From Lawsonibacter asaccharolyticus (GTDB lineage Bacteria > Bacillota > Clostridia > Oscillospirales > Oscillospiraceae): a DNA stretch of 64,000 nt. Where the stretch lies: positions 3,038,001-3,102,000 of the forward strand of contig BFBT01000001.1 of the NCBI GenBank assembly GCA_003112755.1. The letters are read 5' to 3'. Numbering within the stretch: the first letter of the stretch is position 1; each line of letters opens with the position of its first letter. The position numbers and the translations under genes were made by a program. The notes under the pieces were generated by a model. That model ran no database searches, was not told the origin of the DNA, and saw only the letters and a program-made list of their open reading frames with translations. Below, piece after piece: positions 31,446 to 58,848 of the stretch.

Positions 31446-31871
31446 ATGTTTATTTATGAAAAAAAGCTCCAGTTCCCGGTAAAGATCGCCACGCCTAATC
31501 CCAAACTCGCCGCTTTTATTATCAGTCAGTACGGAGGTCCCGACGGGGAGCTGGGCGCTTCCATGCGCTATCTGTCCCAGCGCTACTCTATGCCTTATGC
31601 CGAGGCAAAGGGACTGCTCACCGACATCGGTACTGAGGAACTGGGCCATATGGAGATGGTGGCTGCCATCGTCCATCAGCTGACCCGGAACCTCACTGAC
31701 GAGGAGGTACGGAACTCCCCGTCCTTTGCCCCCTATTTTGTAGACCACACCACCGGCGTCTATCCCACGGCAGCTTCGGGCTTCCCCTGGAGCGCCGGCT
31801 CTATCCAGTCCACGGGCGACGTCATCGCTGACCTTACAGAGGACCTGGCAGCAGATGGTGCAATGGCGTAA
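31446..31871 (+). pseudogene. cotJC: cotJC, 5' part, interrupted by the mobile element
   Basis: Residues 1-136 match CotJC, a Mn-catalase-like spore coat protein (YEKKLQFPVKIATPNPKLA, DGELGASMRYLSQRY, TDIGTEELGHMEM, LTEDLAAD). The match stops in the third helix of the ferritin-like bundle. The last codons (from 31856) belong to the element, with a stop at 31869-31871. Two metal ligands of the family (Glu of the third helix and the His of the fourth) are lost, so this piece should be inactive. The missing 74 codons lie in frame at 58624-58845. Confidence 0.93.
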
Positions 31872-31877
31872 GGCCAA
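31832..31877. other. attL: left junction of the element in cotJC
   Basis: The central dinucleotide GA is at 31854-31855. To its left is cotJC sequence (CCTGGCAGCA); to its right is the element arm at 31856-31877 (TGGTGCAATGG-C-GTAAGG). The 8 bp GCAGCAGA at 31848-31855 recur at 58624-58631. Confidence 0.88.
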
Positions 31878-31895
31878 CAGCCCTTAAAATGCATC

Positions 31896-31938
31896 AAACT
31901 CCCTGATTCCGCAACAAAAACGGAATCAGGGAGTTTTC
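31896..31938. terminator. Terminator just inside the left end
   Basis: AAACTCCCTGATTCCG (31896-31911) pairs with its complement at 31921-31936, followed by TTCC. It separates cotJ transcription from the element. Confidence 0.85.
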
Positions 31939-31952
31939 CTATCTTATACGGT

Positions 31953-32993
31953 TTAAGTCAGCGCTGTCAAGCCCTTCTCCTTCAGGAAACCATCTGCATT
32001 TTGAATCGCCGCATCAATTTCTTTGTGGTTGATCCGGTTCAAGTCGGCCTCCTTCTCCCCCTTCAAAACCAGCCGCACCTTGCACATCTGGAAGAGCATG
32101 CTTACCAACCGGACCGTGTTCTCTGTCAGCGTCTTCTCCGCATCGGAATAAAGATTCCAGTCAGTTTTTCCGGACAAAATCACCAGATTGCCGAGCTGCT
32201 CCAGATGACGCCGGTAGACCCGATCTACAGCGGAGAGTGTTTTTTCAAATTTTGCCTCCGTATCGGCCAGCTCCACCAAATACAGCCGGATCTGGTTGAT
32301 TTCTTCCTCCGCCTTTTTCATTTGCTCCATGGCTTGATTGGCCTTATCTGAGAGCTTGCTGCCGGTCAGATTGAAGATGATCCCACCAACCAGAAGTCCC
32401 ATGCCCAACGTCGTCGCGCCGAGAATCGTCGTACCAAGTGCGATCCCTCCGCCGCCGGCCGCAATCGCTCCGCCGCCCAGAGCAGCCAGCGTGGCATTGG
32501 TTGCCGCAGCGCCGCTCAATGAGGCAATGGCCGTTCCGGTAGAGGCTGTCCCAAACGCCATAACGGCGGCTGTTGTCGCACCAGCAGCGGCAAACCCACC
32601 GGCTGTGCCCAACGCGGCACCGCCAAGACCGCCCAGCAGGACTCCCGCTCCTACAGATACTTCCTTCAGTTCCTCGGCATTATACATGGGGATCTTCACA
32701 TCATCCTTGCTATATTCTTGGAACTCAGGGCGGTTCTGGATTCGGTCAAAAATGTCGGAAAATTTCTGAAAGCTCTCCAGGATCTCCAGTTCTTTCTTAC
32801 CCAGCGTATCCATGGCTTCGGTCGTCTGCTTGTTCTGCGCTTCAAAGCGAGCAATGTTGTCCTGGTGCCGCTGTTCCGCACTCTTCATGGTGTCGTGAGC
32901 TTTTTTCATTTTTACGCCCCCATGAATGGCGCTTCCAACCCCGGCAGCAGCGGCAGCAGCGGCGGCTCCTCCTAAAATAAGCGGTAATGGCAT
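31953..32993 (-). CDS. Gly/Ala-rich membrane protein of unknown function
   Basis: The 346-aa product has an Ala-rich N-terminal hydrophobic segment (MPLPLILGGAAAAAAAAGVG), a coiled-coil-like charged region (~30-90), a long Gly/Ala-rich hydrophobic stretch (~115-215, glycine-zipper-like), and a C-terminal helical, charged region. This resembles pore-like or membrane-remodelling effector proteins, but no family is recognised. ATG 32993 has AGGAGG upstream. It is the last gene of a minus-strand group with the two genes to the right. Confidence 0.75.
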   Translation of the reverse strand: MPLPLILGGAAAAAAAAGVGSAIHGGVKMKKAHDTMKSAEQRHQDNIARFEAQNKQTTEAMDTLGKKELEILESFQKFSDIFDRIQNRPEFQEYSKDDVKIPMYNAEELKEVSVGAGVLLGGLGGAALGTAGGFAAAGATTAAVMAFGTASTGTAIASLSGAAATNATLAALGGGAIAAGGGGIALGTTILGATTLGMGLLVGGIIFNLTGSKLSDKANQAMEQMKKAEEEINQIRLYLVELADTEAKFEKTLSAVDRVYRRHLEQLGNLVILSGKTDWNLYSDAEKTLTENTVRLVSMLFQMCKVRLVLKGEKEADLNRINHKEIDAAIQNADGFLKEKGLTALT

Positions 32994-33007
32994 GATAATA
33001 TCCTCCT

Positions 33008-33250
33008 TCACTCTTTCAATAATTTACATGCCTCTTTATTGAGACGGATATACTCCTCATAAGTCATCATCTCCTGAAAAAACAGATGATAACATTCATC
33101 GACCCGGCACAAAAGCGGCCGGTTTTCATAAATGCTGCACAGATTTCCAGCCAGGTACCGGCACGTCCCGTCCCCCCGGTCCAGTTCGGCATACAGCTTG
33201 GACTTCCTTAGATTCCGGCAGCATGCTCCGCATCGATCGCAGTAAAACAT
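33008..33250 (-). CDS. YkgJ-like cysteine-cluster protein
   Basis: The 80-aa protein has Cys residues in the pattern CDRCGACCRN, CRYLAGNLCSIYENRP, LCRVDECY, typical of the YkgJ/CxxCxxCC zinc- or iron-sulfur-binding family. Length is at the short end of the family. Its ATG overlaps the stop of the upstream gene (TGATG), so translation is coupled. The next gene begins 14 bp beyond its stop. Confidence 0.8.
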   Translation of the reverse strand: MFYCDRCGACCRNLRKSKLYAELDRGDGTCRYLAGNLCSIYENRPLLCRVDECYHLFFQEMMTYEEYIRLNKEACKLLKE

Positions 33251-34542
33251 CACCGAAACACCAGATGATTCTTTTTGTTGGACATAAAGGTATCAAAATT
33301 TCCCTGCCAAGGAAGGTCAATTCCTAAGTCAATCATGGATTTCCGAAGAAGGATGTTAAGTTGATCTTCTGTCTGAACGTGATCCATATACTGAAGCGAA
33401 TGATTATAAAATTCCGTTTCTTGCTGGAAAGATTCCAAATCAATGCTCTTCAGTTGGGTAAGATAGAGCTCGAGACTTTTGTTAATCCGCTTATATGCAT
33501 CCAATTGTTTTTGAAGTGAAAGCGCAATTCCGGTACGAATACAGATTTCTTTCAAAACCAATGTACTGAAACGTACCCAGGCAATCAGATTCATACGCAA
33601 AAAGAGATTTAACCAATTCCCGCCAGAACGAATAGCCGCATCTGCTCCATCCATCAGACACAGCGTGCCGTGTCCAAAAAGTAGCATTACTCTCAAATCC
33701 GCATGAGCTTGCGTTGGCACACACTCGGTCAAAGGAATTCCACGATAAAAATACCTCTTTATTGTCCAAATGAGCCGAATGGTTAAATCACATACCAGAA
33801 CCGGGATCGCCATAGCAAGGCTAAAACGGGCATCATATCCCTCTTGGAAAGCCCGGATTGCTAAGGTCGCAAAATCTTGTCGATCTTTTCCGATTTGAAA
33901 ACTTCCAAAATTACAAAATTGAAAAAGCTCAAAAAAAGGAATAGCCACGCCTGTCCCTCGTCCAGAATTTCCTCGACTACCGGAACTCCCTGCAATATCG
34001 GACATGATATGTCCAAACCAGTTTGCCACACCACAGAAAAGTTTTGAAATAACATTATGTCCTTGCAATTCGAATGTCTGTGTCTGTATTGTAATTAGTT
34101 TTCCATTGCTGATAAAGGAAGCAGTTGAGGTAAATTGGTTCAGAATGGAAAAAAAGAGCCCGACGACATCCGGCGAGTGGGCCAGCGATTTTATATGATG
34201 ATTCTTGGTGCTCATAGCAAAAACGCTGTCTACATCCGCTGTGTAACGTTGATCATAATTTACTTTAAATTTTCGCTCTAAGTAACCGATTGCACTGGCA
34301 ACATTGCTTTCCTTTCCAGCAGCCGGTTTCCAGCCTGTCATGCTTACAAATTTCATGACGGCAGTATCGACCTGTTTGTCCGTCCACTGCCCAAGCGCAC
34401 TCTCGCCCGGAGCCCCTACAAAAAAAATATCAAGCAAACCTGCAATGGCTCCGCAGGCAATGGAACACAAATAATCTTGTGTCTCACAGGAATCCTGTCT
34501 TAACAAGACAGCATCACTTTTGGAAATGGCTCCCCACTCCAT
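33250..34542 (-). CDS. Membrane-associated protein of unknown function
   Basis: The 430-aa protein has an N-terminal segment with a hydrophobic patch (CSIACGAIAGLLDIFFVG), a Gly/Ser-rich turn (SDIAGSSGSRGNSGRGTG), then hydrophobic stretches around residues 240-260 and 310-350. I recall similar proteins scattered in Clostridia but cannot name a family. Bases here are markedly more A+T-rich than in the chromosome. ATG 34542 follows GGAAGGAG. Linked to a WYL regulator upstream and a Cys-cluster protein downstream, it may belong to a regulated defence or stress module. Confidence 0.7.
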   Translation of the reverse strand: MEWGAISKSDAVLLRQDSCETQDYLCSIACGAIAGLLDIFFVGAPGESALGQWTDKQVDTAVMKFVSMTGWKPAAGKESNVASAIGYLERKFKVNYDQRYTADVDSVFAMSTKNHHIKSLAHSPDVVGLFFSILNQFTSTASFISNGKLITIQTQTFELQGHNVISKLFCGVANWFGHIMSDIAGSSGSRGNSGRGTGVAIPFFELFQFCNFGSFQIGKDRQDFATLAIRAFQEGYDARFSLAMAIPVLVCDLTIRLIWTIKRYFYRGIPLTECVPTQAHADLRVMLLFGHGTLCLMDGADAAIRSGGNWLNLFLRMNLIAWVRFSTLVLKEICIRTGIALSLQKQLDAYKRINKSLELYLTQLKSIDLESFQQETEFYNHSLQYMDHVQTEDQLNILLRKSMIDLGIDLPWQGNFDTFMSNKKNHLVFR

Positions 34543-34565
34543 TATGGATTCTCCTTCCAATTATT

Positions 34566-35492
34566 CTACAACCGTTTGACTCGATTCCCCTGACTTTTCA
34601 GCCACATATCGATCCCCTTTCCAAACACTTCCGCCCGGATCTCATACGTCCCGTCCCGCTCGCCGACAATCTCCGCTGTGGGCAGGCGGTCCAGGACGGC
34701 TTCCACCGACAGTCCCTGATACAGAAAATGAACCGTCCGCAGCCTCCCTCCGTACATGAATTGGACCCGCTTTCGAAATTCCCCTTCTGAAAAGCGCTGA
34801 CTATATGGGACGGTGAAGTGTTCCGATTGTACCTGGATCTGTTCCAGGCGGTCCACCCGATAGATAGTGGGATAGGGGTCCTCCGGATATTCAAATTCCT
34901 CATTTCGGTCCACGTTTTTCAAAAATGCCGCCAAATAAAAGTAGAACTCGGAGCACATCAGGCCCACTGGTTGGAGCCGGCGGTGCTTCTTCTCTCCTGT
35001 CTGAGTTTGATAATCCGCCTCGATCTCTGAATGGGTCTGAATGGCCTGCCCCAGGGTCCATAAAATGTCTACCAGCGGTTTTCCGTGGCGGGGCTCCACA
35101 TAACAATGGCGCTCGTTGGAAAGAATCTCCTGGAGCTTTTCCCGCTCCGGCGGCCGTATGCCAGGAGCCAGGAGTTTATCCAGAATCTGATCCAGCTCCC
35201 GCTTTGATAGCGACCGGCTTTCTAGGAGAATCTTGCAAACCGCCAGCATTTCCCCACAGGAGAGAAGCGCACCCTCACCCTCGGACAGCCGGTAGCAGTT
35301 CCGCTCCGGATCATAGTGGATCTCCAACGGCGGAGTCTGCTCCGCAAAAAAGTTCCGGAGCTGTTCAATATCCCGCTGAATGCTGCGCTCAGACACGCCA
35401 AAGACTTGCGCAGCCTCTTTCTTCCAAATGCTCCCCCGGTTGACCAACTGATCGTACAGAGATAGGAGGCGGAATCCTTTTTCCTCTGCCAT
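34566..35492 (-). CDS. WYL-domain transcriptional regulator
   Basis: The 308-aa protein has an N-terminal winged HTH (residues ~8-60, SVSERSIQRDIEQLRNFF-like) and a WYL domain (~150-225: KHRRLQPVGLMCSEFYFYLAAF, YRVDRLEQI), with a C-terminal extension. WYL proteins bind ligands or nucleic acids and often repress phage-defence loci. It lies 23 bp upstream of the unknown membrane protein and probably controls that group. It is divergent from an XRE regulator. Confidence 0.88.
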   Translation of the reverse strand: MAEEKGFRLLSLYDQLVNRGSIWKKEAAQVFGVSERSIQRDIEQLRNFFAEQTPPLEIHYDPERNCYRLSEGEGALLSCGEMLAVCKILLESRSLSKRELDQILDKLLAPGIRPPEREKLQEILSNERHCYVEPRHGKPLVDILWTLGQAIQTHSEIEADYQTQTGEKKHRRLQPVGLMCSEFYFYLAAFLKNVDRNEEFEYPEDPYPTIYRVDRLEQIQVQSEHFTVPYSQRFSEGEFRKRVQFMYGGRLRTVHFLYQGLSVEAVLDRLPTAEIVGERDGTYEIRAEVFGKGIDMWLKSQGNRVKRL

Positions 35493-35672
35493 TTCTCTCC
35501 CTCCTTCTCCATTATACCGACCGGGTTAGACGGAAACTGTCCATGAGAAGAAAAAAGCTCCTGTTTCCTATCCCTTATTCTACCCTAAAAGTTCTTTTAT
35601 TTCAACACCAAAAGTTTATTTATAGAAGGAACTCTCCGGGATAAACTGAATGAAACTACTGGGGGGCGCTAT
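35493..35672. promoter_or_regulatory. Divergent regulatory region between the WYL and XRE genes
   Basis: Contains a minus-strand TATAAT (35511-35516) for the WYL gene and an AT-rich stretch with a repeated AAAAGTT-T-TTTAT-type motif (about 35587-35620). These may be operator sites. Confidence 0.4.
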
Positions 35673-35999
35673 ATGGACTGGATAGCAATCGGAAGCAGGA
35701 TACGAAAACAGCGGGAATATCTTGGCTACACCAGAGAACAGTTTGCCGAACTGCTGGAGGTCACACCGAAATTTTGTTCGGATATTGAACTCGGCGTCAA
35801 AGGGATGTCTGTTCCGACCCTCTGTAAGATATCTTCCACGCTCCGTCTGACCACAGATTATATTCTATTTGGCAGAGCAGAGGTCCGGGCCGACGATCCA
35901 ATCTCTCTTCTCCTCCACAGTTGTACAAATACAGAGCGGGAGTATGCCGAAAGTCTGTTAAAAACCTTTCTTTTGGCCATGAGTCAGGACCACCCGTAA
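35673..35999 (+). CDS. XRE-family HTH regulator
   Basis: The 108-aa protein has an N-terminal lambda-repressor-like HTH (IGSRIRKQREYLGYTREQFAELLEVTPKF, split here as IGSRIRKQREYLGY and TREQFAELLEV). Its last codons (DHP and stop) fall in a hairpin (CCACCCG-TAAAA-CGGGTGG) that looks like the end of the neighbouring IS200-type element, so the C-terminus may have been altered by that insertion. Confidence 0.82.
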   Translation: MDWIAIGSRIRKQREYLGYTREQFAELLEVTPKFCSDIELGVKGMSVPTLCKISSTLRLTTDYILFGRAEVRADDPISLLLHSCTNTEREYAESLLKTFLLAMSQDHP

Positions 36000-36660
36000 A
36001 ACGGGTGGCCTGCACTGACCCTATAAGGGTCTAGTATTGGCCGCGCCTCAAGGCGCGGTGAAACGGTCTGCCGACCGCATTCTCTTACGAGCGGCCCCAC
36101 CAAGTGGGGCTGCTCTTACTTGCTCTTATTAACCGGCTCACCCGTAAACGGGTCATAGTATTCTTTGATTGTGAGCTGGTCGCTTATTTTGTCTTCCTGG
36201 AGCTGATTTCGGATATACTCCGCAATGGCTTTTTTGTTTCTTCCCACCGTATCCACGTAATATCCCTTACACCAGAACTGTCGATTTCCATACTTATACT
36301 TCAAATTCGCATGTCGATCGAATATCATCAGTGAACTTTTTCCTTTGAGATATCCCATAAACTGTGATACACTATACTTCGGTGGTATACTTACGAGCAT
36401 ATGGATATGATCCGGACAAGCCTCTGCCTCTATGATTTCCACACCTTTATACTCGCACAGTTTCCGAATAATCACCCCGATATCCGATCGAATCTGCCCA
36501 TATATCACTTGTCTTCGATATTTTGGGGCGAAGACTATATGATACTTACAGTTCCATTTTGTGTGGGCCAAGCTGTCTGTTTCTTCTTTTTTCTTTATCA
36601 CTGATATTCCTCCTTCGTTTTTGAGATGCGGTCGGCCAACCACTCTCATTCTACCGAAGT
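35985..36660 (-). mobile_element. IS200/IS605-type insertion sequence (ends approximate)
   Basis: tnpA is flanked by stem-loops: CCACCCG/CGGGTGG (35990-36005), GACCCT/AGGGTC (36018-36032), CGCGCC/GGCGCG (36038-36053) and GCCCCAC/GTGGGGC (36095-36111). Such hairpins are what Y1 transposases bind. No tnpB is present. Exact ends cannot be set without comparison. Confidence 0.65.
36116..36601 (-). CDS. tnpA: IS200/IS605 family transposase TnpA (Y1 type)
   Basis: The 161-aa Y1 HUH transposase has KYHIVFAPKYRRQVIYG, the His-hydrophobic-His motif CPDHIHMLVSIPP, and the C-terminal helix with the catalytic Tyr (IAEYIRNQL). It cuts single-stranded DNA and moves by peel-and-paste. GTG 36601 follows AAGGAGG; the longer upstream reading is not needed for the family. 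Confidence 0.9.
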   Translation of the reverse strand: MIKKKEETDSLAHTKWNCKYHIVFAPKYRRQVIYGQIRSDIGVIIRKLCEYKGVEIIEAEACPDHIHMLVSIPPKYSVSQFMGYLKGKSSLMIFDRHANLKYKYGNRQFWCKGYYVDTVGRNKKAIAEYIRNQLQEDKISDQLTIKEYYDPFTGEPVNKSK

Positions 36661-36778
36661 CTGCAAATAAAAAGTCAATAGGGAAATAAAGCAAAATTGA
36701 GGAGAGAAAAAGGCCATGCCAAAAGCGGCCAGCAGGTAAAGGACGCTGGCCGGATGGTCAGGTATGTAACAGTGCACA

Positions 36779-37192
36779 TTACTTCTGAGGCAGAATAATC
36801 GTTGCTTTAGAGAAGTTGTTCCAGTCAAGGCACTGCCCACAGCGGTCACAATAGGACTGGTATTCCCGTTCCATAGTCCTTCTACATTGCGGGCAAACAG
36901 GAAAACCCGTCACGCCAGAGAGGTATCGAAAGCAGCGGATGTGTGTAACTGGCATCGGTTCGCGGAAGGCCATCTCTCTCCAGAACTCTGAGGGGATCAA
37001 CAGGTCATTTGGCGTCAGTTCAAAGCCAACGCAGAGTTTTTCCAGCGTCAGGATCGTGGGCGCAGTCTTGCCTCTGGCAATGTCGCCAAAGTACCTGGAA
37101 CTGAGGTCACATCGTTCCGAGGCAGCTTCATAGCTGAGCTTTTGAGTATCACATAATTTGAGGACGGAGGTGGATAAATTGTCTAAAAACAT
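36779..37192 (-). CDS. HTH regulator with C-terminal zinc ribbon
   Basis: The 137-aa protein has an XRE-type HTH (LSYEAASERCDLSSRYFGD) and a C-terminal double-Cys ribbon (VCPQCRRTMEREYQSYCDRCGQC). No partner is obvious; the gene sits between two insertion sequences. The ribosome site is weak. Confidence 0.75.
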   Translation of the reverse strand: MFLDNLSTSVLKLCDTQKLSYEAASERCDLSSRYFGDIARGKTAPTILTLEKLCVGFELTPNDLLIPSEFWREMAFREPMPVTHIRCFRYLSGVTGFPVCPQCRRTMEREYQSYCDRCGQCLDWNNFSKATIILPQK

Positions 37193-37269
37193 CTTAATCG
37201 CTCTCTTTCTGTCATAAGATGCTTTTAGCGTATGGGCAATATGGTTCTGCTACAAGGAAGGATACTTCC

Positions 37270-38481
37270 TTAATTTTCCTCCAGAGATGCCAGATATTCT
37301 TTTACTCTGCCATAATAGATGCGCAGGAACTTGTTGGCGCCGGCTGTCATGTAAACCAGATAGGGTTTGCCCTCGGCTCGTTTCTTGTCCATGAAACGGT
37401 ATACCGGGTCATCCTGGGGCTGTGTTTTCAGTAGGCAGTCCATAACCAGGAATAAGGCGCGGCGCAGCTCCGGCGGCCCGCTTTTGGAAACCCTTGTGCT
37501 CTTAGCCTCGTGAGTGCCGGACTGGTCAGCGCCAGGGTCAACGCCCGCAAAAGCGGTAATGGCGTTTCGGTGGGTAAACCGGGCCACATCCCCAAGCTCC
37601 GCCATAAGCTGAGGGCCGAGAGAATCGCCTACACCGTGCATGGCCATGACCACAGGGTATTCCGGGAGCTGGGCTGCCAGGGCCTGCATTTCAGCCTTGA
37701 GCCGTTCCAGAGAGGCAGAGACGGCGTTCAGCGCATCAATGGCCTGCCGGACCATGGTTTTGGTCAGAGCGTCCTTGGGGAGCATGGCAATCAGGTCCTG
37801 TGCTCCGGTGTGGACCTCAACGGCTTTGCTCTGGCTGAAGTTGTAGCCATGCCGTTTACACCACTTACGGTAACGCTCGGCAAAGGCAGTGAGGCTCATG
37901 TTTCGCACACAGTCCACATGCCAAAAGGCCGTGGCAAAGTCCACCCACTTCTGGCTGCCGTCCTCACGGACAGGGCTGTCAAATAGGGCGTTGACGCCGG
38001 GATAGGTCTGGTCAAGAAGGGCGATGAGGTTGTTTTTCATCATCGTCTTAGTCTTAGCGTATAGACTCTGCTGCCGGTTCAGCGTTTTCAGTTGCATTCG
38101 AATCGTATCCATGGGTGTATGTTGGCGCAATTCTGCCCAGTTGTCAAGCCCATAGCGGGCAATCTTCCGGGCATCTGCCTTGTCTGTTTTCACTTTTCGC
38201 AGGGTGTTGTTCCCGTAGTCTTTGATAAGCTTCGGATTGACTGCGCTGACAAAGACGCCCTCCTCATGAAGAAAACGGGCTACCGGCTCATAGTACCGTC
38301 CGGTATGCTCCATGACTACTCGTGTCTCACCGTCCAGGCTTTTCAAGTAGTCTGCCAGCTCCTTGAGTTCACTGCCGGTGTGACCAATAGAAAATGGTTT
38401 TGCTACCACTTCTCCAAAAGGGCGGAGAACGGATACCATGCTCTTTCCTTTGGAAACATCGATCCCTGCCACATTGTTCAT
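37270..38481 (-). CDS. IS110 family transposase
   Basis: The 403-aa protein has the IS110 layout: an N-terminal RuvC-like DEDD domain (GIDVSKGKSMV, VVMEHTGRYYEP, NPKLIKDY, KTDKADARKIARYG) and a C-terminal transposase_20 domain with GVGDSLGPQLMAELGD, ITAFAGVDPGADQSG and the catalytic Ser in VSKSGPPELRRALF. It appears intact. ATG 38481 follows GAGGAG. IS110 enzymes are guided by a bridge RNA from the element's non-coding end. Confidence 0.94.
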   Translation of the reverse strand: MNNVAGIDVSKGKSMVSVLRPFGEVVAKPFSIGHTGSELKELADYLKSLDGETRVVMEHTGRYYEPVARFLHEEGVFVSAVNPKLIKDYGNNTLRKVKTDKADARKIARYGLDNWAELRQHTPMDTIRMQLKTLNRQQSLYAKTKTMMKNNLIALLDQTYPGVNALFDSPVREDGSQKWVDFATAFWHVDCVRNMSLTAFAERYRKWCKRHGYNFSQSKAVEVHTGAQDLIAMLPKDALTKTMVRQAIDALNAVSASLERLKAEMQALAAQLPEYPVVMAMHGVGDSLGPQLMAELGDVARFTHRNAITAFAGVDPGADQSGTHEAKSTRVSKSGPPELRRALFLVMDCLLKTQPQDDPVYRFMDKKRAEGKPYLVYMTAGANKFLRIYYGRVKEYLASLEEN

Positions 38482-38733
38482 ATTGATCGCTCCTCATCAT
38501 GGATTTGTTTTGGCGACCAGCCATTCCACCATTGCCGATCCAATCTATTTGATGACACGGGCGCACCAAGGAGGTGGCTCAACCTGCATAAATCGAACGC
38601 TGCGAATGAGAGGCCGGCTGACGGACTTCGTCACGGACGCGCTGGTCCTTGGAGGTATACATCAGGCCAAGACTCTCTCATTCTAACAGCTTAGGCAACG
38701 ATGCGGAAAAAGACACGGCTGGCTGCCGTGCCT
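38482..38733 (-). ncRNA. Candidate IS110 bridge-RNA region (non-coding left end)
   Basis: About 250 bp upstream of the IS110 gene carry no credible ORF. IS110-group elements place a structured bridge RNA here. Short inverted repeats are visible (CTGACGGACTTCGTCACG near 38619; CGGCTGGCTGCCG near 38716). The boundaries are a guess and no loop-target match was tested. Confidence 0.4.
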
Positions 38734-38833
38734 TCAACCGTAAATACATTGTAATAGGAGGTTTATCTTTTCTACGTATAGGCATACCCTTTTGGGAGCC
38801 ACGGGCATAGCCCGTGGTTGCCGTTTTACAATA
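38734..38833. other. Gap with IS-end-like hairpin
   Basis: Contains GCCACGGGC-ATA-GCCCGTGG at 38798-38817, similar in style to IS200/IS605 ends; no gene is seen. Confidence 0.4.
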
Positions 38834-39404: not shown

Positions 39405-39421
39405 CGTTCAATTCCTTTCTC

Positions 39422-40143: not shown

Positions 40144-40151
40144 ACAGTTCT

Positions 40152-52073: not shown

Positions 52074-52749
52074 CTTGTCCCTCCCTGGTGATAACCCCTC
52101 GATAGACGGTTCGAAGGCCAAACTCTCGTCCCCCTGAGAGTCTTTCGTCAGGCCGGGTAAAACTCCCCACCCCGTCTCCTGGAATCTCACATTCATAGTA
52201 CAACGCCTGCGGAGCGGATTTGTCTCCCTTCCGCATACAGACCGGGTAGCGCTGGATCGCATCCAATAAGTCGGAGTATGCCTCTGTCACTCCTTCAAAC
52301 ACAGGTCGGGATGGGACACAGCTCTTTCGTCCCAGGTAGATGGGCCACACCGGCTGCTTCAGAGCCGCTGTCACCCGCTCCCGCCAATCATCCGGCAGAT
52401 CCAGCACCACCAAAAAACTGGCGTCCTGGAGATACCAGCGAGGTGAGATGACCGTGTTGCTTGACCGGGGCTTCCCCTCCGCGTTATAAAGCGGATACCC
52501 CTGTACCGTGTGGAAATCCAGCACACGGATCCCGGGGCGATCCACCCGCACCGCCATATGTAGGGCTGCGGACAGAGCTGCAATCTCCGGATCTCCCCGC
52601 TCTAATCCCATAGCGCACGACAAAAGACCTACAACGCCGGATTTGCTTGGAAAATCCCCACTGTCCCGGACGTCCCATTTAGAGTGGTCCCCCCAGGACT
52701 GCAGCGCCCCTTCCAGCCGCAGGATCAGCAAAGTTTTCTTTTCTTCCAT
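52054..52749 (-). CDS. cas5e: Cascade subunit Cas5e
   Basis: The 231-aa RAMP protein has LRLEGALQSWGDHSKWDVRDS and FPSKSGVVGLLSCAMG, typical of Cas5e (CasD), which caps the 5' handle of crRNA in Cascade. ATG 52749 has GAGG upstream. Confidence 0.95.
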   Translation of the reverse strand: MEEKKTLLILRLEGALQSWGDHSKWDVRDSGDFPSKSGVVGLLSCAMGLERGDPEIAALSAALHMAVRVDRPGIRVLDFHTVQGYPLYNAEGKPRSSNTVISPRWYLQDASFLVVLDLPDDWRERVTAALKQPVWPIYLGRKSCVPSRPVFEGVTEAYSDLLDAIQRYPVCMRKGDKSAPQALYYECEIPGDGVGSFTRPDERLSGGREFGLRTVYRGVITREGQDVSDEN

Positions 52750-52759
52750 CACATTCGCC

Positions 52760-53902
52760 TCACGCCAGAGCAGCCGCCACCTGTTCGATCAATTCTGTCA
52801 GTGTCTTGCACACCGTAGTCTCACATTCTGGTACGATAGAGCATGCTGTGGGACAGAACCACAGCCGTTGTTTCACGTTTAATCCAAAACTGTTCTGTAT
52901 CGTGTCAACTTGACTAGCCAGCGCCTGAACACTGCCCTTCACCAAATCGTAGTCATTGGCCAGCTCCGGTTTAATCGGCCGCACAAAGGCGTTGACCATA
53001 CTGACCGGCACCTTCTCCTCCTTGCATTCCACAAGGATCGCACTGGGAAGCACGTTTCCAGCAAAGCTGTTCTGTTTCCCTGATGGGTTGGTCAACGCCA
53101 TAGTACGGATCAACGCAGGGATGGCCGCTTTCACCAACTGCTCTGCATCCGGCGTATCCTTCAGGTTTTTCATCAAAATATCCGTATCCAGAGAGGCATA
53201 GATGTAGTAGCATGCGGAGTTGTAATCGGTATCCCCGATCATGGCGGACCCTTTTTCCTCTATCACCTCCCCGGAGAGCAGATCATCCATGGCGGTGAAA
53301 TAGTCGGATTCCATGTTCATCTTATTGGTAGAGATAGCATGGGCCACCTGCATGGCGGCTTCCACATCCCGGAACGCATTGGAAGTCACCATTCTCCCAA
53401 AGAGTGCCATGTCCAGTGTGACAGGGCGGCTCTCCGCTCCCTTTACCGCCTCCTGCAGATCCTTTGCCTTCAATGCCTTGACCTCTTTCAGGGATGGACA
53501 ATCCTTGAGCTTTTCATAAATAGCTTCCGCCACCGCCTGGATATCTTCCGGCGCATAGAACACAATCTGTGCGGTGTAGCTGCCATCCTTATTCTCTGCG
53601 CCGTCTTTGTTGCCAAATCCACTGATTTTGGGGAATACAGTGTCAATATACTCTTGACTGACTCCCATCTCCGCCAGCTTCTCTGCCACCAGTTGGGGCA
53701 GCTTACGGGTTCGAATGCCCAGATGTTCCGCTCCGATGGTCTGAGAGAACAGCGGCGAACGCCTCCAGCTCCGCTTCAAGCACTGGCTGGACACACGGCC
53801 CCGGGTCGTTCCGCCAAACATACAGGACTTGGGAGCGCCAGACTCATCCCGGTTCAGATTGACCGGGGGATAGTTTTTCAGCATATGGATCTCGTATAGC
53901 AT
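52760..53902 (-). CDS. cas7e: Cascade backbone subunit Cas7e (Cse4/CasC)
   Basis: The 380-aa protein has the Cas7e start EIHMLKNYPPVNLNRDESG and GGTTRGRVSSQCLKRSWRRS, and later DMALFGRMV and VQVAHAIST-type segments (here AMQVAHAISTNKMNMESDYFT broken at residue ~195). It forms the six-unit crRNA filament. Confidence 0.96.
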   Translation of the reverse strand: MLYEIHMLKNYPPVNLNRDESGAPKSCMFGGTTRGRVSSQCLKRSWRRSPLFSQTIGAEHLGIRTRKLPQLVAEKLAEMGVSQEYIDTVFPKISGFGNKDGAENKDGSYTAQIVFYAPEDIQAVAEAIYEKLKDCPSLKEVKALKAKDLQEAVKGAESRPVTLDMALFGRMVTSNAFRDVEAAMQVAHAISTNKMNMESDYFTAMDDLLSGEVIEEKGSAMIGDTDYNSACYYIYASLDTDILMKNLKDTPDAEQLVKAAIPALIRTMALTNPSGKQNSFAGNVLPSAILVECKEEKVPVSMVNAFVRPIKPELANDYDLVKGSVQALASQVDTIQNSFGLNVKQRLWFCPTACSIVPECETTVCKTLTELIEQVAAALA

Positions 53903-53905
53903 GGG

Positions 53906-54427
53906 TCATTCTCCTTCCTGTTCATCCAATGTTTCTTTCGGCTTGGTATAAAGTGCCCGGGCCCATTTCCGCTGCACACTCTGTTTCTCTCCGTTCCAAT
54001 AGAACAGATCCTCCAGCAAATGCTGACAGTCCACTGCATATCCTTTCGACCTCACAAACCGGATCAGTCTGGACAGCTTTTTGAGCATAAATCCATCCTC
54101 GTCCCACTGGAGATCCAGAAGCATTTCCAATCGGTGGCCGGTGCTCTCGGACATCTCTTTATCCCGACCAAGTTGATAGAAGATCTGCTCCAAAGGCTGG
54201 CGGCGTTTCTCATCTGTATCCCAGAGACAGTACAGACAAGCTGCCGCAAATGCTCGCTCCTCCTGCCACTGCGGTATGGAGAAAGGCAGGCACTGAAAGA
54301 AAACACGCATGGCCTGTCCATCCGCCTGACTCAGCATGGTCCCAGCTTCCCGTTTCAGAGATGCACGCTCTCCTCTCGGCAAGGTATCAAGCCGCTGGAA
54401 GAAACTGCTCCAATCCACTTCCTTCAT
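53906..54427 (-). CDS. cse2: Cascade small subunit Cse2 (CasB)
   Basis: The 173-aa helical protein has the Cse2 pattern (RGERASLKREAG, CLYCLWDTD, RRQPLEQIF, GYAVDCQHLLEDLFYW, RKWARALY). It stabilises the R-loop. ATG 54427 overlaps the cse1 stop by 4 bp. Confidence 0.92.
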   Translation of the reverse strand: MKEVDWSSFFQRLDTLPRGERASLKREAGTMLSQADGQAMRVFFQCLPFSIPQWQEERAFAAACLYCLWDTDEKRRQPLEQIFYQLGRDKEMSESTGHRLEMLLDLQWDEDGFMLKKLSRLIRFVRSKGYAVDCQHLLEDLFYWNGEKQSVQRKWARALYTKPKETLDEQEGE

Positions 54428-55869
54428 GTCTTCATCCCCTTCTTGATTGCCGCGATTTCTTTTCCAAGTACTTTTTGCTGATAATCCATAACCTGGAGCA
54501 TAGCTCTTCCGCGCAGGGTCAGCTGCTCCAAGGTCCAATCTGCACATTCCGCTGCTGTCCTGCATTGCCAGCTGATGGCCGCTGTCAGATTGGCAGCATA
54601 ATCAAATCCAGGCTGTGCCAACGCATCAAACTGGCTCCACAGTATCTGCTCGCAAACAGCGTAGTACCTCTGTCTGGCCTGAACACGGCTCTCCTCCGGG
54701 ATCTCCTCCAGGGCCAGCGCTTTATAAAGCGCCCGGCCCAACCGCTCCGCCTGCGCGACAAACTCGGTAATAAAGCGCAGCGCGTTCTCATTCCCCAGTA
54801 ACTTTTTGGGAATTTGAAGGTCGTGCCTCTGTGCCCTCATATAGTTTGCCTGATTGGTCTGAACTCCGTAAATCACAAGAGACATCGGACGATCCGAGGT
54901 ATCCAATTTTTCATACTGCGCTATGATCTGGGGAGCACGCTTTCCTTTCGTGTCAATCAGATCCGTTAGGTTGCGCCAGATCGCTTCATCCGCAGATGGC
55001 TTCCAGTTAAATCGTCCCTTTGCATTGTATCGGTATGTAACATGCGGGTCTGTCCAAGAATCTGTCACTTCAAAGTTCATTCCTTGGCTGAAATATACGT
55101 TTTCAACGTATTCACCAGACTCATCTGAAATTAGATGGATCCGCCTTGCTGGGAAAAACATACCAAACAGCCATGATGTCCTCGCCACTTTTTGTTTGGA
55201 TACCACTTCATCCGGATTACGCCACAAGACCGGAGGCCGATCAAGGGGCAGATCAATTCGATCCACCTCGATCATACCAAACACTAAAGTCTGAAACAGG
55301 TTCTTTCCCCGGATCAGTGTAAACCATGGCGGAGCGCCGTTCATATTAGAGGGATACCCCTGCGCCCCTGCGGTACAAAAAATCTGCGCAGCCAACATCA
55401 TCCGCAGCGCTTTGCCGGGCGTGTAAGTGATCTTCTCCCGCTTGTGATCGAAATGGATGTGGTTGTTCCCATTTGGGATAGAGTAATCCAATGTGGAGAC
55501 CGGTTTTGGATCTCGATCCCAATCTGCACGATATCGGGTCTGTAAAAATGGCCGCTCTGAATCGAAGAGGTCAAAGCTCACCCCCTCCTGTTCACACTGG
55601 CGCACATAGCGCTGGATAGTATCCCAATCAAATTGCCCCTCATCCAATAACTCCTCCAATACTTCCTCATCCTCTGGTCGAAGCATGTCCATGAGAAACA
55701 CGATCAGAAAGCGGTAAACACTGTACTCTACCATAGGAGATGGATCCTGAATTTCGCTGAGCAGGTGGGCCCTCTCCAGCGTTTCCAGCAGGCTAAGCTC
55801 TTTCATGCTTCCGTCCAGCTCTTTTACTGGGATCCACGGCTGCGTTAAAATTTGAAATGACGCCTTCAC
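54424..55869 (-). CDS. cse1: Cascade large subunit Cse1 (CasA/Cas8e)
   Basis: The 481-aa protein has the CasA pattern: FQILTQPWIPVKE at the start, DLFDSERPFLQTR, GKALRMMLAAQIFCTAGAQG-type segment, and the four-helix C-terminal bundle. It reads the PAM and recruits Cas3. GTG 55869 is preferred (AAGGGG 8 nt upstream); the more upstream GTG 55878 overlaps cas3. Confidence 0.94.
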   Translation of the reverse strand: MKASFQILTQPWIPVKELDGSMKELSLLETLERAHLLSEIQDPSPMVEYSVYRFLIVFLMDMLRPEDEEVLEELLDEGQFDWDTIQRYVRQCEQEGVSFDLFDSERPFLQTRYRADWDRDPKPVSTLDYSIPNGNNHIHFDHKREKITYTPGKALRMMLAAQIFCTAGAQGYPSNMNGAPPWFTLIRGKNLFQTLVFGMIEVDRIDLPLDRPPVLWRNPDEVVSKQKVARTSWLFGMFFPARRIHLISDESGEYVENVYFSQGMNFEVTDSWTDPHVTYRYNAKGRFNWKPSADEAIWRNLTDLIDTKGKRAPQIIAQYEKLDTSDRPMSLVIYGVQTNQANYMRAQRHDLQIPKKLLGNENALRFITEFVAQAERLGRALYKALALEEIPEESRVQARQRYYAVCEQILWSQFDALAQPGFDYAANLTAAISWQCRTAAECADWTLEQLTLRGRAMLQVMDYQQKVLGKEIAAIKKGMKT

Positions 55870-55874
55870 ACACC

Positions 55875-58457
55875 TCACCCCTTCTCAAAAAATATACCCA
55901 ACTCTTTGTCTGCAACGATTTGGGTTCCATCAGCTTGAGTATACCGCATATTTCCATTTTCATCTACTGTGGCAGTATAAATTTCGATCCCCTCCAGCAG
56001 TCTTCTGCCGAAGATCACGCCTTCCGTTCCGTGCCGCAGAAGTTTTGCCCGAACAGAGACACTGGCCTTCAGGATCTCACGCGCCTCTTCTCTGGTCACA
56101 TCTGATAGACACAGTCGGTCTCCACAATGCTGACTTTTGCTGCGTAAAGATCCAAACCGCTCCGGCGGCAAAAGTACAATACGTACGGTCGGTTCACCCA
56201 AGCGCGTCTTGGCCGAGAGGTAGCTGCTGCTTTCCAGATCGTCAAATTGAATCCGTTCAGCTTCTTTGATCGGGGTGTATCCCTTTTCAGGGGCATTGAT
56301 CAGATAACCTCCGCCGGCCGCCGCTTTAACCTGATCTTCCATTAGGTGATCTATCCAGAGATCCAATTCCTCCGGTGGAGCCGCTTCTGGGCTGTAGCCT
56401 TGCTCCACCAATGTGGGCAGATCCTCTGGAATCTGTATTTCACTGCGTTCTTCCAACAGATGAATACTCTGCTTCAGAAGACACTCTGGGTAAATATAGC
56501 CGTCCGCCTCAAATTTTCCTGTCTCATCAGGAATCAGCACATAGAACCGTGGGGCAGCAAGATGAGGCGGCCGGGGCGTATCTTCATGGCGAAACTCCCG
56601 TCCAAGGCGCTGGAGCAGAAGGTCAATTGGCGCGATCGAAGTCATCATAACGTCAAAATCCACATCCAGAGACTGCTCCACCACCTGAGTGGCCACTAGA
56701 ATAGCCTTCTGCGGGCGAGCTGCCTTTTCTTTTCCAAAGAGACGGATACAGCGCTGTTCGATTTGATCCCGCTGGCCAATCGGAAAACGCGCATGGAATA
56801 AAAGCAATTCTCCATCAAATTCTTTGGTTTTGAGCGCTTGGTAGGTCTCCTGGGCTTGCTGGACGGTATTGAGCAAAATACAGAGGCATCCACCGTCTTT
56901 CACCAGTCCCATCGCCTTCTCGGCAATCTGTTCCGCATGATGCAGCACCGGGCAAAGCTCGACGGATACTGTCTGTCGTTTTTCCGTCCGGCTGACCGGC
57001 CGCACGATTACATTCCCTGACTCTGTTACAGCAGTAATCGAAGGATAGCATGGCTGGATTGGATGATCGGTATAGGCAGACAACATTTGCGCCTTTTTCT
57101 CCGGCGGAAGAGTGGCAGACAACAGGACCACAGGGATCTCCAGGGCTTTACACCATTCTAGCAGCCGATGGAGGATCTCACTCATATAGACATCGTAGGA
57201 GTGGAGCTCATCGATCACCAAAGTTTTCTCTGCCAATCCCAGCAGCCGCAAAACGCCGTATTTCACCAGCAAGACAGACATCATTGCCTGATCCACCGTG
57301 CCAACCGCATAGGAACTCAATAACCCTCGACGCACTGGAAGAAGCCAGCTTGAGGCATAGCGCTCCTCCTCTGTCTCGAATTTAGGCCAGGATTGGGTAT
57401 TGTCTCCGTCAACCAGCCAGGCCATACTGTGAAGGAGACGGACTGAGTCTGGAAACTGATGCAGCTTTAATAAAGTCCGCATACGTCCAACCATCTGATT
57501 GGAGGTAGCTGCTGTAGGCAAACCAACATAGAAACCACTTTTCCCCCACTGTTTGGCCCTTCGAATCCCTGCATAGATTCCGGCCTCCGTTTTTCCCTCC
57601 CCCATAGGTGCCTCCAACAGTACCACAGAAATGCGCTCCTGTGCCTGTTGAAAAAGGGCCTCAGTTTCTGATTGCAAGCCCCGCATTACATCTCTTGGAA
57701 TATTGGGCCACACATCATGAAATTCATTTCCAAAGTCTGCGGCCTGCGATGTCAGTCCGCTCAGCATCAAAAATTTTTCCGCAAGACATTTTGCGTGCTC
57801 CTCCCCATCCGGCTGATTGATCCAGAGTTCTGCTTGGGCAAAATAGTTACTGGATGCAATCCAGTCCGACAGGATCACAATTCCAAGCAGCAGCGCACCT
57901 ACACTTCCTCTGTTTTCTTTCCCAAGAGGGGGTAAAAATAATTCCTCAGAGCGTAAAAATCGAAGCCGCATCCAGTGCTCGAATTCTTCCTGAAGATGAT
58001 TCCAAAAGAGATCTTGCCGGTCCCCTTCCGTTCCGCTTTTCCCTTGGTGATGCACTTCTAGAATATCCGCATAGAATTTAGCTGCGCTTTGATTCGAGGC
58101 TTCCTTCCAGAGGCGTTCCCGCAGACAACGCCAGGTAGTTTTCTCATGACGGATCTGGTTTAAAGCAGGAAAGTCTGGTTTTACACCCTCTTTATCCATA
58201 CTTTCCTTCATAGGCAACCAGCGATATTGAAATTGCCCTTCTATCTTACCCACATCATGAAGGGATACAAGGTATCCAATCCAGTCTGTAAATTTCTCTG
58301 GAGTGCACGATAATAACGCCAACAATTTATTTCGTACGCCTGGGACAATCATCTTATGAACGATGACTTGTGCGACAATCCCAGAAATGAAGGAATGGGT
58401 CAGAATGGATTGAAAAGGTTCTGTCTTCGCCCATATCTGTTGTAAACCAATGCTCAT
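55875..58457 (-). CDS. cas3: CRISPR-associated nuclease-helicase Cas3
   Basis: The 860-aa protein joins an N-terminal HD nuclease (LTHSFISGIVAQ, SLHDVGKIEGQFQYRW) and a superfamily 2 helicase: LLEAPMGEGKTEAG (Walker A), VIDELHSYD (Walker B), LLSATLPP, TQVVEQSLDVDFD and QRLGREFRH. It degrades target DNA after Cascade binding. ATG 58457 follows AGGAGGT. It is the first gene of the cas operon. Confidence 0.96.
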   Translation of the reverse strand: MSIGLQQIWAKTEPFQSILTHSFISGIVAQVIVHKMIVPGVRNKLLALLSCTPEKFTDWIGYLVSLHDVGKIEGQFQYRWLPMKESMDKEGVKPDFPALNQIRHEKTTWRCLRERLWKEASNQSAAKFYADILEVHHQGKSGTEGDRQDLFWNHLQEEFEHWMRLRFLRSEELFLPPLGKENRGSVGALLLGIVILSDWIASSNYFAQAELWINQPDGEEHAKCLAEKFLMLSGLTSQAADFGNEFHDVWPNIPRDVMRGLQSETEALFQQAQERISVVLLEAPMGEGKTEAGIYAGIRRAKQWGKSGFYVGLPTAATSNQMVGRMRTLLKLHQFPDSVRLLHSMAWLVDGDNTQSWPKFETEEERYASSWLLPVRRGLLSSYAVGTVDQAMMSVLLVKYGVLRLLGLAEKTLVIDELHSYDVYMSEILHRLLEWCKALEIPVVLLSATLPPEKKAQMLSAYTDHPIQPCYPSITAVTESGNVIVRPVSRTEKRQTVSVELCPVLHHAEQIAEKAMGLVKDGGCLCILLNTVQQAQETYQALKTKEFDGELLLFHARFPIGQRDQIEQRCIRLFGKEKAARPQKAILVATQVVEQSLDVDFDVMMTSIAPIDLLLQRLGREFRHEDTPRPPHLAAPRFYVLIPDETGKFEADGYIYPECLLKQSIHLLEERSEIQIPEDLPTLVEQGYSPEAAPPEELDLWIDHLMEDQVKAAAGGGYLINAPEKGYTPIKEAERIQFDDLESSSYLSAKTRLGEPTVRIVLLPPERFGSLRSKSQHCGDRLCLSDVTREEAREILKASVSVRAKLLRHGTEGVIFGRRLLEGIEIYTATVDENGNMRYTQADGTQIVADKELGIFFEKG

Positions 58458-58607
58458 AGGAATACCTCCTCTCACTTATATTGAAATCATTTTACATTCA
58501 AATCTGTCCAATAAATGAGACTCAGGAAAATTTTTTATTTCTGTGATTTTGAGTATAACATTATTTGAACGCTGTTTGTACAATAAAGATTACTGCCTCT
58601 AAGAAAG
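58458..58607 (-). promoter_or_regulatory. AT-rich region upstream of cas3
   Basis: Probably holds the cas operon promoter; candidate -10 boxes on the minus strand include TATACT near 58553 and TAAAAT near 58490, but no -35 is convincing. An inverted repeat TTGAA-N-TTCAA spans about 58483-58503. No gene is seen. Confidence 0.4.
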
Positions 58608-58653
58608 TTGTCCTTACACCATTGCAGCAGAGCAGAAAGCCCGCCTCACCTAT
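58608..58653. other. attR: right junction of the element in cotJC
   Basis: The element arm 58608-58629 (CCTTAC-A-CCATTGCA core) meets the central GA at 58630-58631, followed by cotJC sequence (GCAGAAAGCCCGCC). Confidence 0.88.
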
Positions 58654-58848
58654 GACAATATCCTGCGTCTCAGTGATGACCCGGATGTGAACAACGTGAT
58701 CCGCTTCCTGCGGGAGCGGGAGATCGTCCACTTCCAGCGCTTCGGCGAGTGTCTGCGGCTGTGCAAGGAAAAGATGAACAGCAAGAATGTCTATCTCACC
58801 AACCCCGCATTCGACAAACAGATGACGCCCCAGCCCCGAAATGCCTGA
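58624..58848 (+). pseudogene. cotJC: cotJC, 3' part, separated by the element
   Basis: This is an open frame of 74 codons with no start. It encodes the CotJC C-terminus: AAEQKARLTYDNILRL, then SDDPDVNNVIRFLREREIV and HFQRFGECL, with the missing Glu and His ligands. Its first 8 bp (GCAGCAGA) duplicate the end of the 5' part, and the frame is continuous with it. Joined, the two give 208 codons, a normal CotJC length. The terminator of the cotJ operon follows. Confidence 0.93.

What the first reader, a model, noticed from the sequence alone, without database searches (positions are those of the whole stretch)
31446..58848. cotJC is split by a 26.8-kb serine-integrase element whose excision would restore the gene exactly: a skin-like element
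Seen: codons 1-134 of cotJC (31446-31847) and its last 74 codons (58624-58845) are in the same frame and share GCAGCAGA at the break. Joined, they give a 208-codon CotJC with all four metal-ligand helices. Known: sigK (skin), spsM, spoVFB and similar sporulation genes are interrupted by serine-recombinase elements that leave the mother-cell chromosome during sporulation. Inferred: this element may behave the same way, as cotJC is a late mother-cell gene in Bacillus. I know of no description of cotJC as such a target.
Basis: partly seen in the sequence, partly recalled or inferred. Interest (0 to 1): 0.96.

Follow-up and report, generated by a model that had tools for sequence, protein, structure and literature searches.

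The report
CotJC spore-coat gene split by CRISPR-carrying element
In a bacterium with spore-forming genes, the spore-coat gene cotJC is cut in two by a 26.8-kb mobile DNA element that carries a CRISPR defence system and is predicted to cut itself out, restoring the gene, when a spore is made; many relatives have the same gene split at one or more of four places.

Summary
cotJC is split inside codon 137 by a 26,776-bp element (31848-58623). Joining the flanks gives one 208-codon CotJC, the genome's only cotJC. The element holds a large serine integrase, mobilisation genes and a complete type I-E CRISPR-Cas system.

Of the 80 closest integrase relatives, 73 lie in stretches with a cotJC piece that ends near this codon, in eleven named genera. 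cotJC is also split at three further points; all four lie at metal-ligand motifs. In the window's genus, 22 of the 32 sampled genomes with a cotJC match have it split; some relatives' genes are in three pieces.

Distal pieces show no relaxed selection (dN/dS 0.099; intact genes 0.125). The window's piece has no start codon before codon 156. A sigma-E-like promoter precedes the integrase operon in 49 of 78 loci, but the window has only a one-mismatch match. The same genome's sigK is also split, by a skin-type element.

Excision itself was not seen: no attP match in 64 genus genomes. Mother-cell excision is the best inference, not shown.

The parts
30980..31444 (+). fused cotJA-cotJB, directly upstream of cotJC (start codon TTG 30980 is my choice; the ORF tool starts at 30662)
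   Evidence: Pfam CotJA and CotJB in window:30662-31444
31446..31871 (+). cotJC proximal piece: codons 1-136 plus element-coded tail DGAMA and stop (141 aa)
31848..31878 (+). attL: shared core GCAGCAGA (likely crossover GA at 31854-31855) plus right attP arm TGGTGCAATGGCGTAAGGCCAAC
31848..58623 (.). the whole 26,776-bp intervening element
34566..35492 (-). WYL-domain regulator (cargo)
   Evidence: Pfam
36116..36694 (-). IS200-type transposase (cargo)
   Evidence: Pfam
37270..38481 (-). IS110-type transposase (cargo)
   Evidence: Pfam
38850..39404 (-). small serine recombinase, 184 aa
   Evidence: Pfam, PHROGs
40262..42729 (-). DUF3846, glutamine-amidotransferase and amidoligase genes (cargo)
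   Evidence: Pfam
45691..46415 (+). NikA-like mobilisation protein (45691-45957) and short MobA/VirD2-type relaxase (45939-46415)
   Evidence: Pfam
46428..46454 (+). weak sigma-E-like promoter CTA-N16-CATAAAAT (one mismatch to the motif seen in 49 of 78 loci)
46479..46628 (+). 49-aa small ORF, candidate recombination directionality factor
   Evidence: BLAST finds relatives upstream of the integrase in 76 of 81 loci (window included) from this query, 77 from other queries; function inferred
46696..48252 (+). large serine integrase, 518 aa; Y7, R9 and S11 invariant in 8 aligned sequences (window included)
48354..49696 (-). cas2e (48354-48707) and cas1e (48704-49696)
   Evidence: NCBIfam TIGR01873, TIGR03638
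49690..51370 (.). type I-E CRISPR array, 28 repeat copies (up to 8 of 29 bases differing) and 27 spacers
51459..58475 (-). cas6e, cas5e, cas7e, cse2, cse1, cas3
   Evidence: Pfam
58607..58631 (+). attR: left attP arm GTTGTCCTTACACCATT plus core GCAGCAGA (likely crossover GA at 58630-58631)
58630..58848 (+). cotJC distal piece: codons 137-208 and stop; no in-frame start codon before codon 156

Best explanation
cotJC is split at codon 137 by a 26,776-bp serine-integrase element whose excision would restore a 208-codon gene exactly, and which is likely cut out of the mother-cell chromosome during sporulation while the forespore would keep it. Shown: the split, the att sites, the integrase, the shared target codon in relatives, and the constraint on a distal half that has no start codon of its own here. 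Inferred: sigma-E would switch on the small ORF plus integrase operon in the mother cell; the small ORF is predicted to act as directionality factor; attL x attR recombination would join codons 136 and 137 before sigma-K transcribes the cotJ operon. The mother cell dies, so the excised circle, CRISPR-Cas included, would be lost at no cost to the element, which would be inherited through the spore. The element looks like a mobilisable element whose kin move between species and re-enter the same codon, not a fixed host part. A second split gene in this genome, sigK, would need the same kind of excision.
For: Exact join; sole cotJC match in the genome. Shared site: 73 of 80 closest integrase relatives have a cotJC piece in the fetched stretch, with alignment ends near codon 136-137; one more by reading (L129) and one further along the same contig (L058). 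Conserved inverted arms in 57 relatives' attR. Integrase ends a median 80.5 bp from the attR crossover, 49 of 58 loci within 300 bp, window included. In the genus, none of the 7 intact-only genomes shows this integrase at 67% identity or more (G018 has the 45% paralogue; for some genomes only part of the candidates was scored), while 10 of 15 with a codon-137 break do. Distal-core dN/dS in split genes 0.099 (bootstrap 0.071-0.133) against 0.125 (0.040-0.182) in intact ones; over 59 codons of complete pieces 0.154 (0.116-0.196) against 0.190 (0.104-0.243). Of 59 distal pieces, 49 reach the normal C-terminus (48, L124 re-read); 5 of the other 10 are cut by a second element at codon 176 and a sixth, L107, reads alike. 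Only 2 of 58 distal pieces have a start codon with a ribosome-site-like sequence; the window has no start. Sigma-E-like ATA-N15-18-CATANNNT in 49 of 78 loci, spacer 17 in 45 of 49, against means of 1.7 in shuffles and 3.7 in random windows. spo0A, spoIVA, sigE present; sigK split. Precedent: C. difficile skin, with a sigma-E-controlled directionality factor (PMC5025042, passages).
Against: No excised form was found: attP pattern, up to 2 mismatches, 0 of 64 genus genomes; two exact patterns in viral contigs, none, a weak negative since exact patterns would miss diverged arms. One attP-like junction (L058) appears to lie between two tandem integrases, not in a circle. Integrases are more alike between species than the cotJC genes they sit in, in most close pairs, so elements arrive recently and part of the constraint on distal halves predates insertion; the pieces were also found by translated similarity, which favours open ones. 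A first dN/dS on 63 codons gave 0.192 split against 0.117 intact; it included pieces cut at codon 176, and the clean set does not show the difference. The window lacks both the strict and the loose motif and has only a one-mismatch match; with one integrase per 80% cluster the motif is in 7 of 13. GA at the crossover is invariant only by construction, since junctions were anchored on that codon. Six order-sample genomes (G109, G114, G123, G132, G143, G178) show a break near codon 138 and are not among the 18 with the integrase, though its list does not show which others were searched. In the window the integrase is 10.4 kb from attR. G025 has a cotJC with an internal deletion and no element at it.
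Confidence: 0.77

Rival explanations
1. Plain selfish insertion: the element breaks a dispensable spore-coat gene and is not developmentally excised; cotJC is simply a well-conserved target that costs nothing during growth.
For: Elements move horizontally and recently. All four insertion points lie at conserved metal-ligand motifs, as expected of target choice alone. No excised form was seen. G025 carries a damaged cotJC with no element at it.
Against: No relaxation of selection in split distal halves; with 22 of 32 split in the sampled genus genomes, decayed halves should be common. All 59 distal pieces found keep an open core, though the search favours open ones. The one genome seen whose integrase lacks its conserved end (P. 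capillosus An827, premature TGA) also has a second, intact cotJC, and no codons 1-59 were found for its split copy.
Confidence: 0.13
2. Mobile element with constitutive low-level excision: cotJC is restored in a few cells as a by-product of transfer, without mother-cell control, as partly reported for the yabG element of C. botulinum.
For: Mobilisation genes beside the integrase. Tandem and double insertions in relatives. The window's promoter is a weak sigma-E match. The yabG element was seen excised at all time points (PMC10747680, passages).
Against: Sigma-E-like motif at a steady place, median 284 bp before the integrase, in 49 of 78 loci. attP matched in none of 64 genus genomes.
Confidence: 0.12
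3. The two halves are made and work as two separate polypeptides.
For: Both halves are conserved; 41 of 58 distal pieces have some in-frame ATG, GTG or TTG upstream.
Against: In the window no in-frame start precedes codon 156, and only 2 of 58 distal pieces pair a start codon with a ribosome-site-like sequence. Residues E137 and H170, metal ligands by recall, would lie on a piece that is not translated alone.
Confidence: 0.02
4. Assembly artefact.
For: Both integrase and CRISPR repeats can mislead assemblers.
Against: Both junctions lie inside one 3.5-Mb contig. The same codon is split in dozens of independently deposited genomes and in a genome assembled to one contig (G007).
Confidence: 0.01

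Closest known systems
skin elements in sigK (B. subtilis, C. difficile)
   Same: Large serine recombinase, short shared core, insertion inside a mother-cell sporulation gene with exact restoration on excision; in C. difficile the directionality factor is under sigma-E (PMC5025042, passages).
   Different: Target is a structural coat enzyme, not a regulator. Four target points in one gene. The candidate directionality factor lies directly upstream of the integrase behind one sigma-E-like promoter, whereas C. difficile CD1231 is constitutive. Excision unproven here.
gin in gerE, SP-beta in spsM, vfbin in spoVFB, yin in yabG
   Same: Sporulation-gene-intervening elements; gin is a non-phage mobile element, as this one appears to be (PMC5595907 and PMC10747680, passages).
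   Different: None of these targets cotJ. yin was described as unique to one strain, while the cotJC integrase clade spans many genera. CRISPR does not occur in the yin paper's main text; the other papers were not checked for it.
phi027 prophage beside a CotJC-like gene, C. difficile R20291
   Same: A mobile element next to a CotJC homologue, CDR20291_1465 (PMC11222575, passages).
   Different: The gene is described as adjacent, not as split, and the passages seen do not mention restoration in sporulation ('skin' does not occur in the text).
Integrative mobilisable elements and SCC-type cassettes
   Same: Serine recombinase with distant NCBIfam matches to CcrB, CcrC and XisF; relaxase genes; tandem insertions in relatives.
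   Different: NCBIfam cut-offs not reached; the target is internal to a gene whose two halves remain constrained.

Membership tests
skin-like sporulation-gene-intervening element | Located inside a sporulation gene | tested here: met
   cotJC, downstream of Pfam CotJA/CotJB
skin-like sporulation-gene-intervening element | Precise restoration of the reading frame on excision | tested here: met
   In silico join gives 208 codons
skin-like sporulation-gene-intervening element | Encodes its large serine recombinase | tested here: met
   46696-48252; that it acts on these att sites is inferred from relatives
skin-like sporulation-gene-intervening element | Excised circle forms in sporulating cells | not testable with these tools
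   No reads; attP pattern absent from 64 assemblies
skin-like sporulation-gene-intervening element | Mother-cell sigma factor controls recombinase or directionality factor | tested here: inconclusive
   Sigma-E-like motif in 49 of 78 loci, one mismatch in the window
skin-like sporulation-gene-intervening element | Directionality factor present | tested here: inconclusive
   Conserved 49-aa ORF before the integrase; no Pfam or NCBIfam match
skin-like sporulation-gene-intervening element | Prophage-like content (reported for most, not for gin) | tested here: inconclusive
   Mobilisation genes and CRISPR-Cas; no structural phage gene among the window proteins scanned, which were only part of the element's ORFs for PHROGs
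integrative mobilisable element | Integrase plus relaxase, no full conjugation set | tested here: inconclusive
   NikA-like and short relaxase; origin of transfer not sought
type I-E CRISPR-Cas (cargo) | cas3, cse1, cse2, cas7, cas5, cas6e, cas1e, cas2e and array | tested here: met

The most novel reading that the evidence does not exclude
cotJC is the most heavily used docking gene for developmentally excised DNA in anaerobic Clostridia: different, distantly related serine integrases have settled on its metal-ligand motifs (four points: GGP/DGE35, IGT/E64, AA/E137, FG/E176), most sampled species of the window's genus carry the gene in pieces, and spore formation would assemble it by one or more excisions, discarding the mother cell's CRISPR immunity in the process.
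Probability: 0.65. Interest if true: 0.93.

Novelty: new variant of a known kind. Interest (0 to 1): 0.87.

Why it matters
Programmed gene repair in sporulation is known from a handful of genes, mostly in Bacillus and a few Clostridium strains. If cotJC behaves as inferred, it is common across gut Clostridia, has arisen repeatedly at four points of one coat enzyme, and sometimes needs two excisions per gene. It would explain how mobile elements, including defence systems, live for free in a conserved gene: the gene is needed only in a cell that is about to die. It would also mean that annotation reads cotJC as truncated in many gut spore formers, and it gives a simple PCR test in culturable strains.

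Tried and rejected
Free circle: attP patterns in viral contigs and in 64 genus genomes gave nothing. L058 looked like an intact attP, but its genome has a distal cotJC piece further along the same contig, beyond a second integrase, so it reads as a junction between tandem elements; I dropped the circle claim.

Old, vertically inherited insertions: I hoped to show constraint after insertion on co-inherited pairs, but integrase dS is well below cotJC dS in most close pairs, so this was abandoned and kept as a caveat.

GA invariance: one search seemed to show GA in 58 of 58 attR and 10 of 10 attL (window included in both), but the junctions were anchored on that Glu/Asp codon, so it is true by construction; only 10 of 27 proximal pieces passed the pattern. 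I no longer use it as evidence.

Strict sigma-E promoter in the window: absent. Sigma-K pattern before the integrase: 5 of 78 against 1.0 in shuffles, not pursued. Phage collection: only distant integrases, all below 60% identity. First dN/dS scripts used a pattern that matched nothing or a 63-codon region polluted by second-site insertions (split 0.192, intact 0.117); replace them. The script stopped on a division by zero after printing; one search repeats it. The sigK join printed was out of frame; one search is the correct one. A site-61 dN/dS had only 2 and 1 pairs and is not used.
Full report
WHAT IS THERE. The window is G000:C1:3038001-3102000 of a 4.28-Mb genome in 7 contigs. cotJC begins at 31446 behind a fused cotJA-cotJB. 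After codon 136 the reading frame runs into DGAMA and a stop coded by the element. The remaining codons 137-208 lie at 58630-58848. The shared 8 bp GCAGCAGA gives a 26,776-bp element, and joining the flanks gives one 208-codon ORF. No other cotJC match was found in the genome.

ATTACHMENT SITES. The rebuilt attP has inverted arms GTTGTCCTTACACCATTGCA / TGCAATGGCGTAAGGCCAAC round a short core. Across 58 attR (57 relatives and the window) the arm keeps the consensus GTTG..CTT....AT.GCA, and the right arm in 10 attL (window included) mirrors it; 17 other proximal pieces did not pass the script's pattern. In G003 the bases shared by attL and attR shrink to GA, so the crossover is likely the GA that begins the codon for residue 137; either glutamate codon would fit. 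GA invariance is by construction and not evidence.

THE ELEMENT. It carries a 518-aa large serine integrase with Y7, R9 and S11 invariant in 8 aligned sequences; that this is the catalytic motif is recalled. It also has a small serine recombinase, NikA-like and short relaxase genes, two insertion sequences, an amidoligase cluster and a complete type I-E CRISPR-Cas system with 28 repeat copies. In most loci the integrase ends within 300 bp of attR (49 of 58, window included; median 80.5 bp); here the CRISPR-Cas block separates them by 10.4 kb, and by 9.0 kb in P. capillosus An827, whose array shares two spacers.

A SHARED TARGET. A scan of species genomes found 395 relatives of the integrase and kept the best 80, 69-95% identical; the other 315 were not examined. 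Of these 80, 73 hold a cotJC piece in the fetched stretch, with alignment ends near codon 136-137. L129 is a further one by reading, and L058 has its distal piece further along the same contig. Of the other five, L131 ends 89 bp after the integrase; L081 and L099 show an attP-type arm followed by other sequence (L099 reads like an M14 carboxypeptidase gene, untested); in L092 and L127 nothing was recognised in the 300 bp read. Named hosts with a cotJC piece are Pseudoflavonifractor, Flintibacter, Oscillibacter, Roseburia, Blautia, Parablautia, Clostridium fessum, Diplocloster, Anaerotruncus, Anaerotignum and Caproiciproducens.

HOW COMMON, AND WHERE ELSE cotJC IS SPLIT. My reading, which sampled 37 of the 64 genus genomes held: 5 have no match; of the other 32, 22 have cotJC split (G000, G003-G009, G013, G015-G017, G019, G021, G024, G026, G027, G029, G032, G034-G036), 7 are intact, G010 has an intact copy plus a split remnant, G025 has an internal deletion and G030 is unclear. 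For some split ones only one piece was found (for example G004, G008, G009, G017), in incomplete assemblies. This integrase was found in none of the 7 intact genomes and in 10 of 15 with a codon-137 break (G018 has a 45% paralogue, and for some genomes not all candidates were scored). In an order-wide sample at least 33 of 119 genomes with a match show a break near codon 61 or 137 (my reading of a truncated table). Four break points were read in sequence: after GGP before Glu35 (proximal side only, L162, L163; integrase not identified), at IGT/Glu64 (L040, L165-L167, L169-L171, L175), at residue 137, and at FG/Glu176 (L046, L056, L061, L079, L094, L164, L173, L174). CotJC aligns with solved manganese catalases; that E35, E65, H68, E137 and H170 are the metal ligands is recalled from Lactobacillus catalase and this alignment. 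The points thus lie at the four ligand motifs. At Glu64 and Glu176 other large serine integrases sit beside the junction, about 24-25% identical to this one where aligned. Some genes are in three pieces, for example L061 and L094.

DOES IT MATTER TO THE CELL THAT THE HALVES CAN BE JOINED? Pooled dN/dS of the 38-codon distal core is 0.099 (bootstrap 0.071-0.133; 266 pairs from 61 split genes, limited to pairs that are not saturated) and 0.125 in intact genes (0.040-0.182; 27 pairs, 15 genes); split against intact gives 0.097 (163 pairs). Over 59 codons of 44 complete split pieces it is 0.154 (0.116-0.196; 89 pairs), and 0.190 (0.104-0.243; 32 pairs) in 15 intact genes. An earlier 63-codon run gave 0.192 split and 0.117 intact, but it included pieces cut at codon 176. 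Of 59 distal pieces (window included), 49 reach the normal C-terminus (48, plus L124, mis-anchored there and re-read). Of the other 10, L056, L061, L094 and L120 have a second integrase beside a codon-176 junction, L079 has the junction and a third piece elsewhere, L107 reads alike, L077 is cut by the contig end, and L114, L119 and L130 are unresolved. The distal piece in the window has no in-frame start before codon 156; of 58 pieces 17 have none before residue 137, 26 have an ATG, and only 2 pair a start with a ribosome-site-like sequence. Caveats: in most close pairs integrases are more alike than the cotJC genes around them, so insertions are recent and some constraint predates them; and pieces were found by translated similarity. 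A natural contrast, n=1: in An827 the integrase lacks its conserved end (premature TGA), no codons 1-59 were found for the split copy, and a second intact cotJC is present, spanning two contigs with a 77-bp overlap.

CONTROL BY THE SPORULATION CASCADE. A 49-aa ORF lies directly before the integrase; related ORFs are found in 77 of 81 loci. Directionality factors of 53 and 72 aa are reported or proposed in PMC10747680 (passages). Before it, ATA-N15-18-CATANNNT occurs in 49 of 78 loci (81 less 3 with under 200 bp upstream), with spacer 17 in 45 of 49 and a median 284 bp before the integrase; shuffles average 1.7 and random windows 3.7; the strict form is in 25 of 78. These loci are related by descent: with one integrase per 80% cluster it is 7 of 13, against 0.7 in simple shuffles and 0.5 in random windows. 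C. difficile sigma-E promoters have ATA and sigma-K promoters AC at -35, with similar -10 elements (PMC3789822, passages). The window itself has only CTA-N16-CATAAAAT, one mismatch. A sigma-K-like AC-N15-18-CATAG[AG]AT precedes cotJ in 8 of 10 genus loci examined, no chance control run; the window keeps only CATAGGAT. An order of events follows by inference: sigma-E excises, then sigma-K expresses the repaired operon.

THE HOST. spo0A, spoIVA (it lies at window 1647-3125) and sigE (sigE told from sigK by reading) are present. sigK is split by an 8,635-bp element with its own serine recombinases and core CTATGTAT; joining restores ...SRSYVSRIEK.... So this genome carries at least two candidate intervening elements. 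The pattern used for sigma-E was not found before the sigK element's recombinases.

LITERATURE. Five library searches naming cotJC or manganese catalase and three on intervening elements listed no description of cotJC as such a target; searches matched thousands of papers, of which the top 15 and 10 were listed. The nearest remark is a prophage adjacent to a CotJC-like gene in C. difficile R20291 (PMC11222575, passages). A Roseburia intestinalis sporulation paper had no 'cotJ' in its text (PMC11913394, passages). Most subscription papers and bioRxiv are not held.

VERDICT. Observation confirmed. The skin-like reading is supported by comparative evidence but excision is unobserved. The wider pattern, one coat gene docked at four ligand motifs across gut Clostridia, is the more important finding.

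Noticed in passing
own genome G000:C1:473087-481722 (L154): sigK is split by an 8,635-bp element with serine recombinases, core CTATGTAT, a second skin-type element in this genome.
   Followed up: partly
window 49690-51370: Spacer-sized matches to Flavonifractor phage Cormatin (terminase gene, 36 bases at 97%) and to gokushovirus/Microviridae capsid genes: the element's CRISPR appears aimed at gut phages.
   Followed up: partly
L055 / L036 (P. capillosus An827): A kindred CRISPR-bearing element with two shared spacers, integrase with a premature stop, split cotJC remnant plus an intact second cotJC.
   Followed up: partly
L058 1567-1620; L078: Two integrases in a row; in L058 the junction after the first is attP-like, which suggests tandem accretion at one site.
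   Followed up: partly
L066 1671-1768, L080 9575-9672, L059 6455-6535: pemK RNA (Rfam RF02913) lies just before the sigma-E-like promoter of the integrase operon in three of four loci tested.
   Followed up: no
L099 after 6111: A close integrase relative borders what reads like an M14 carboxypeptidase gene instead of cotJC, a possible alternative target.
   Followed up: no
G000:C1:2236091-2237635 (L157): A 46%-identical recombinase elsewhere in this genome, with relatives in many genus members; its target was not identified.
   Followed up: no
L040 (G032): The codon-61 element carries ParB-like, dehydrogenase and acetyltransferase-like genes and ends in a 546-aa serine integrase beside attL.
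   Followed up: partly
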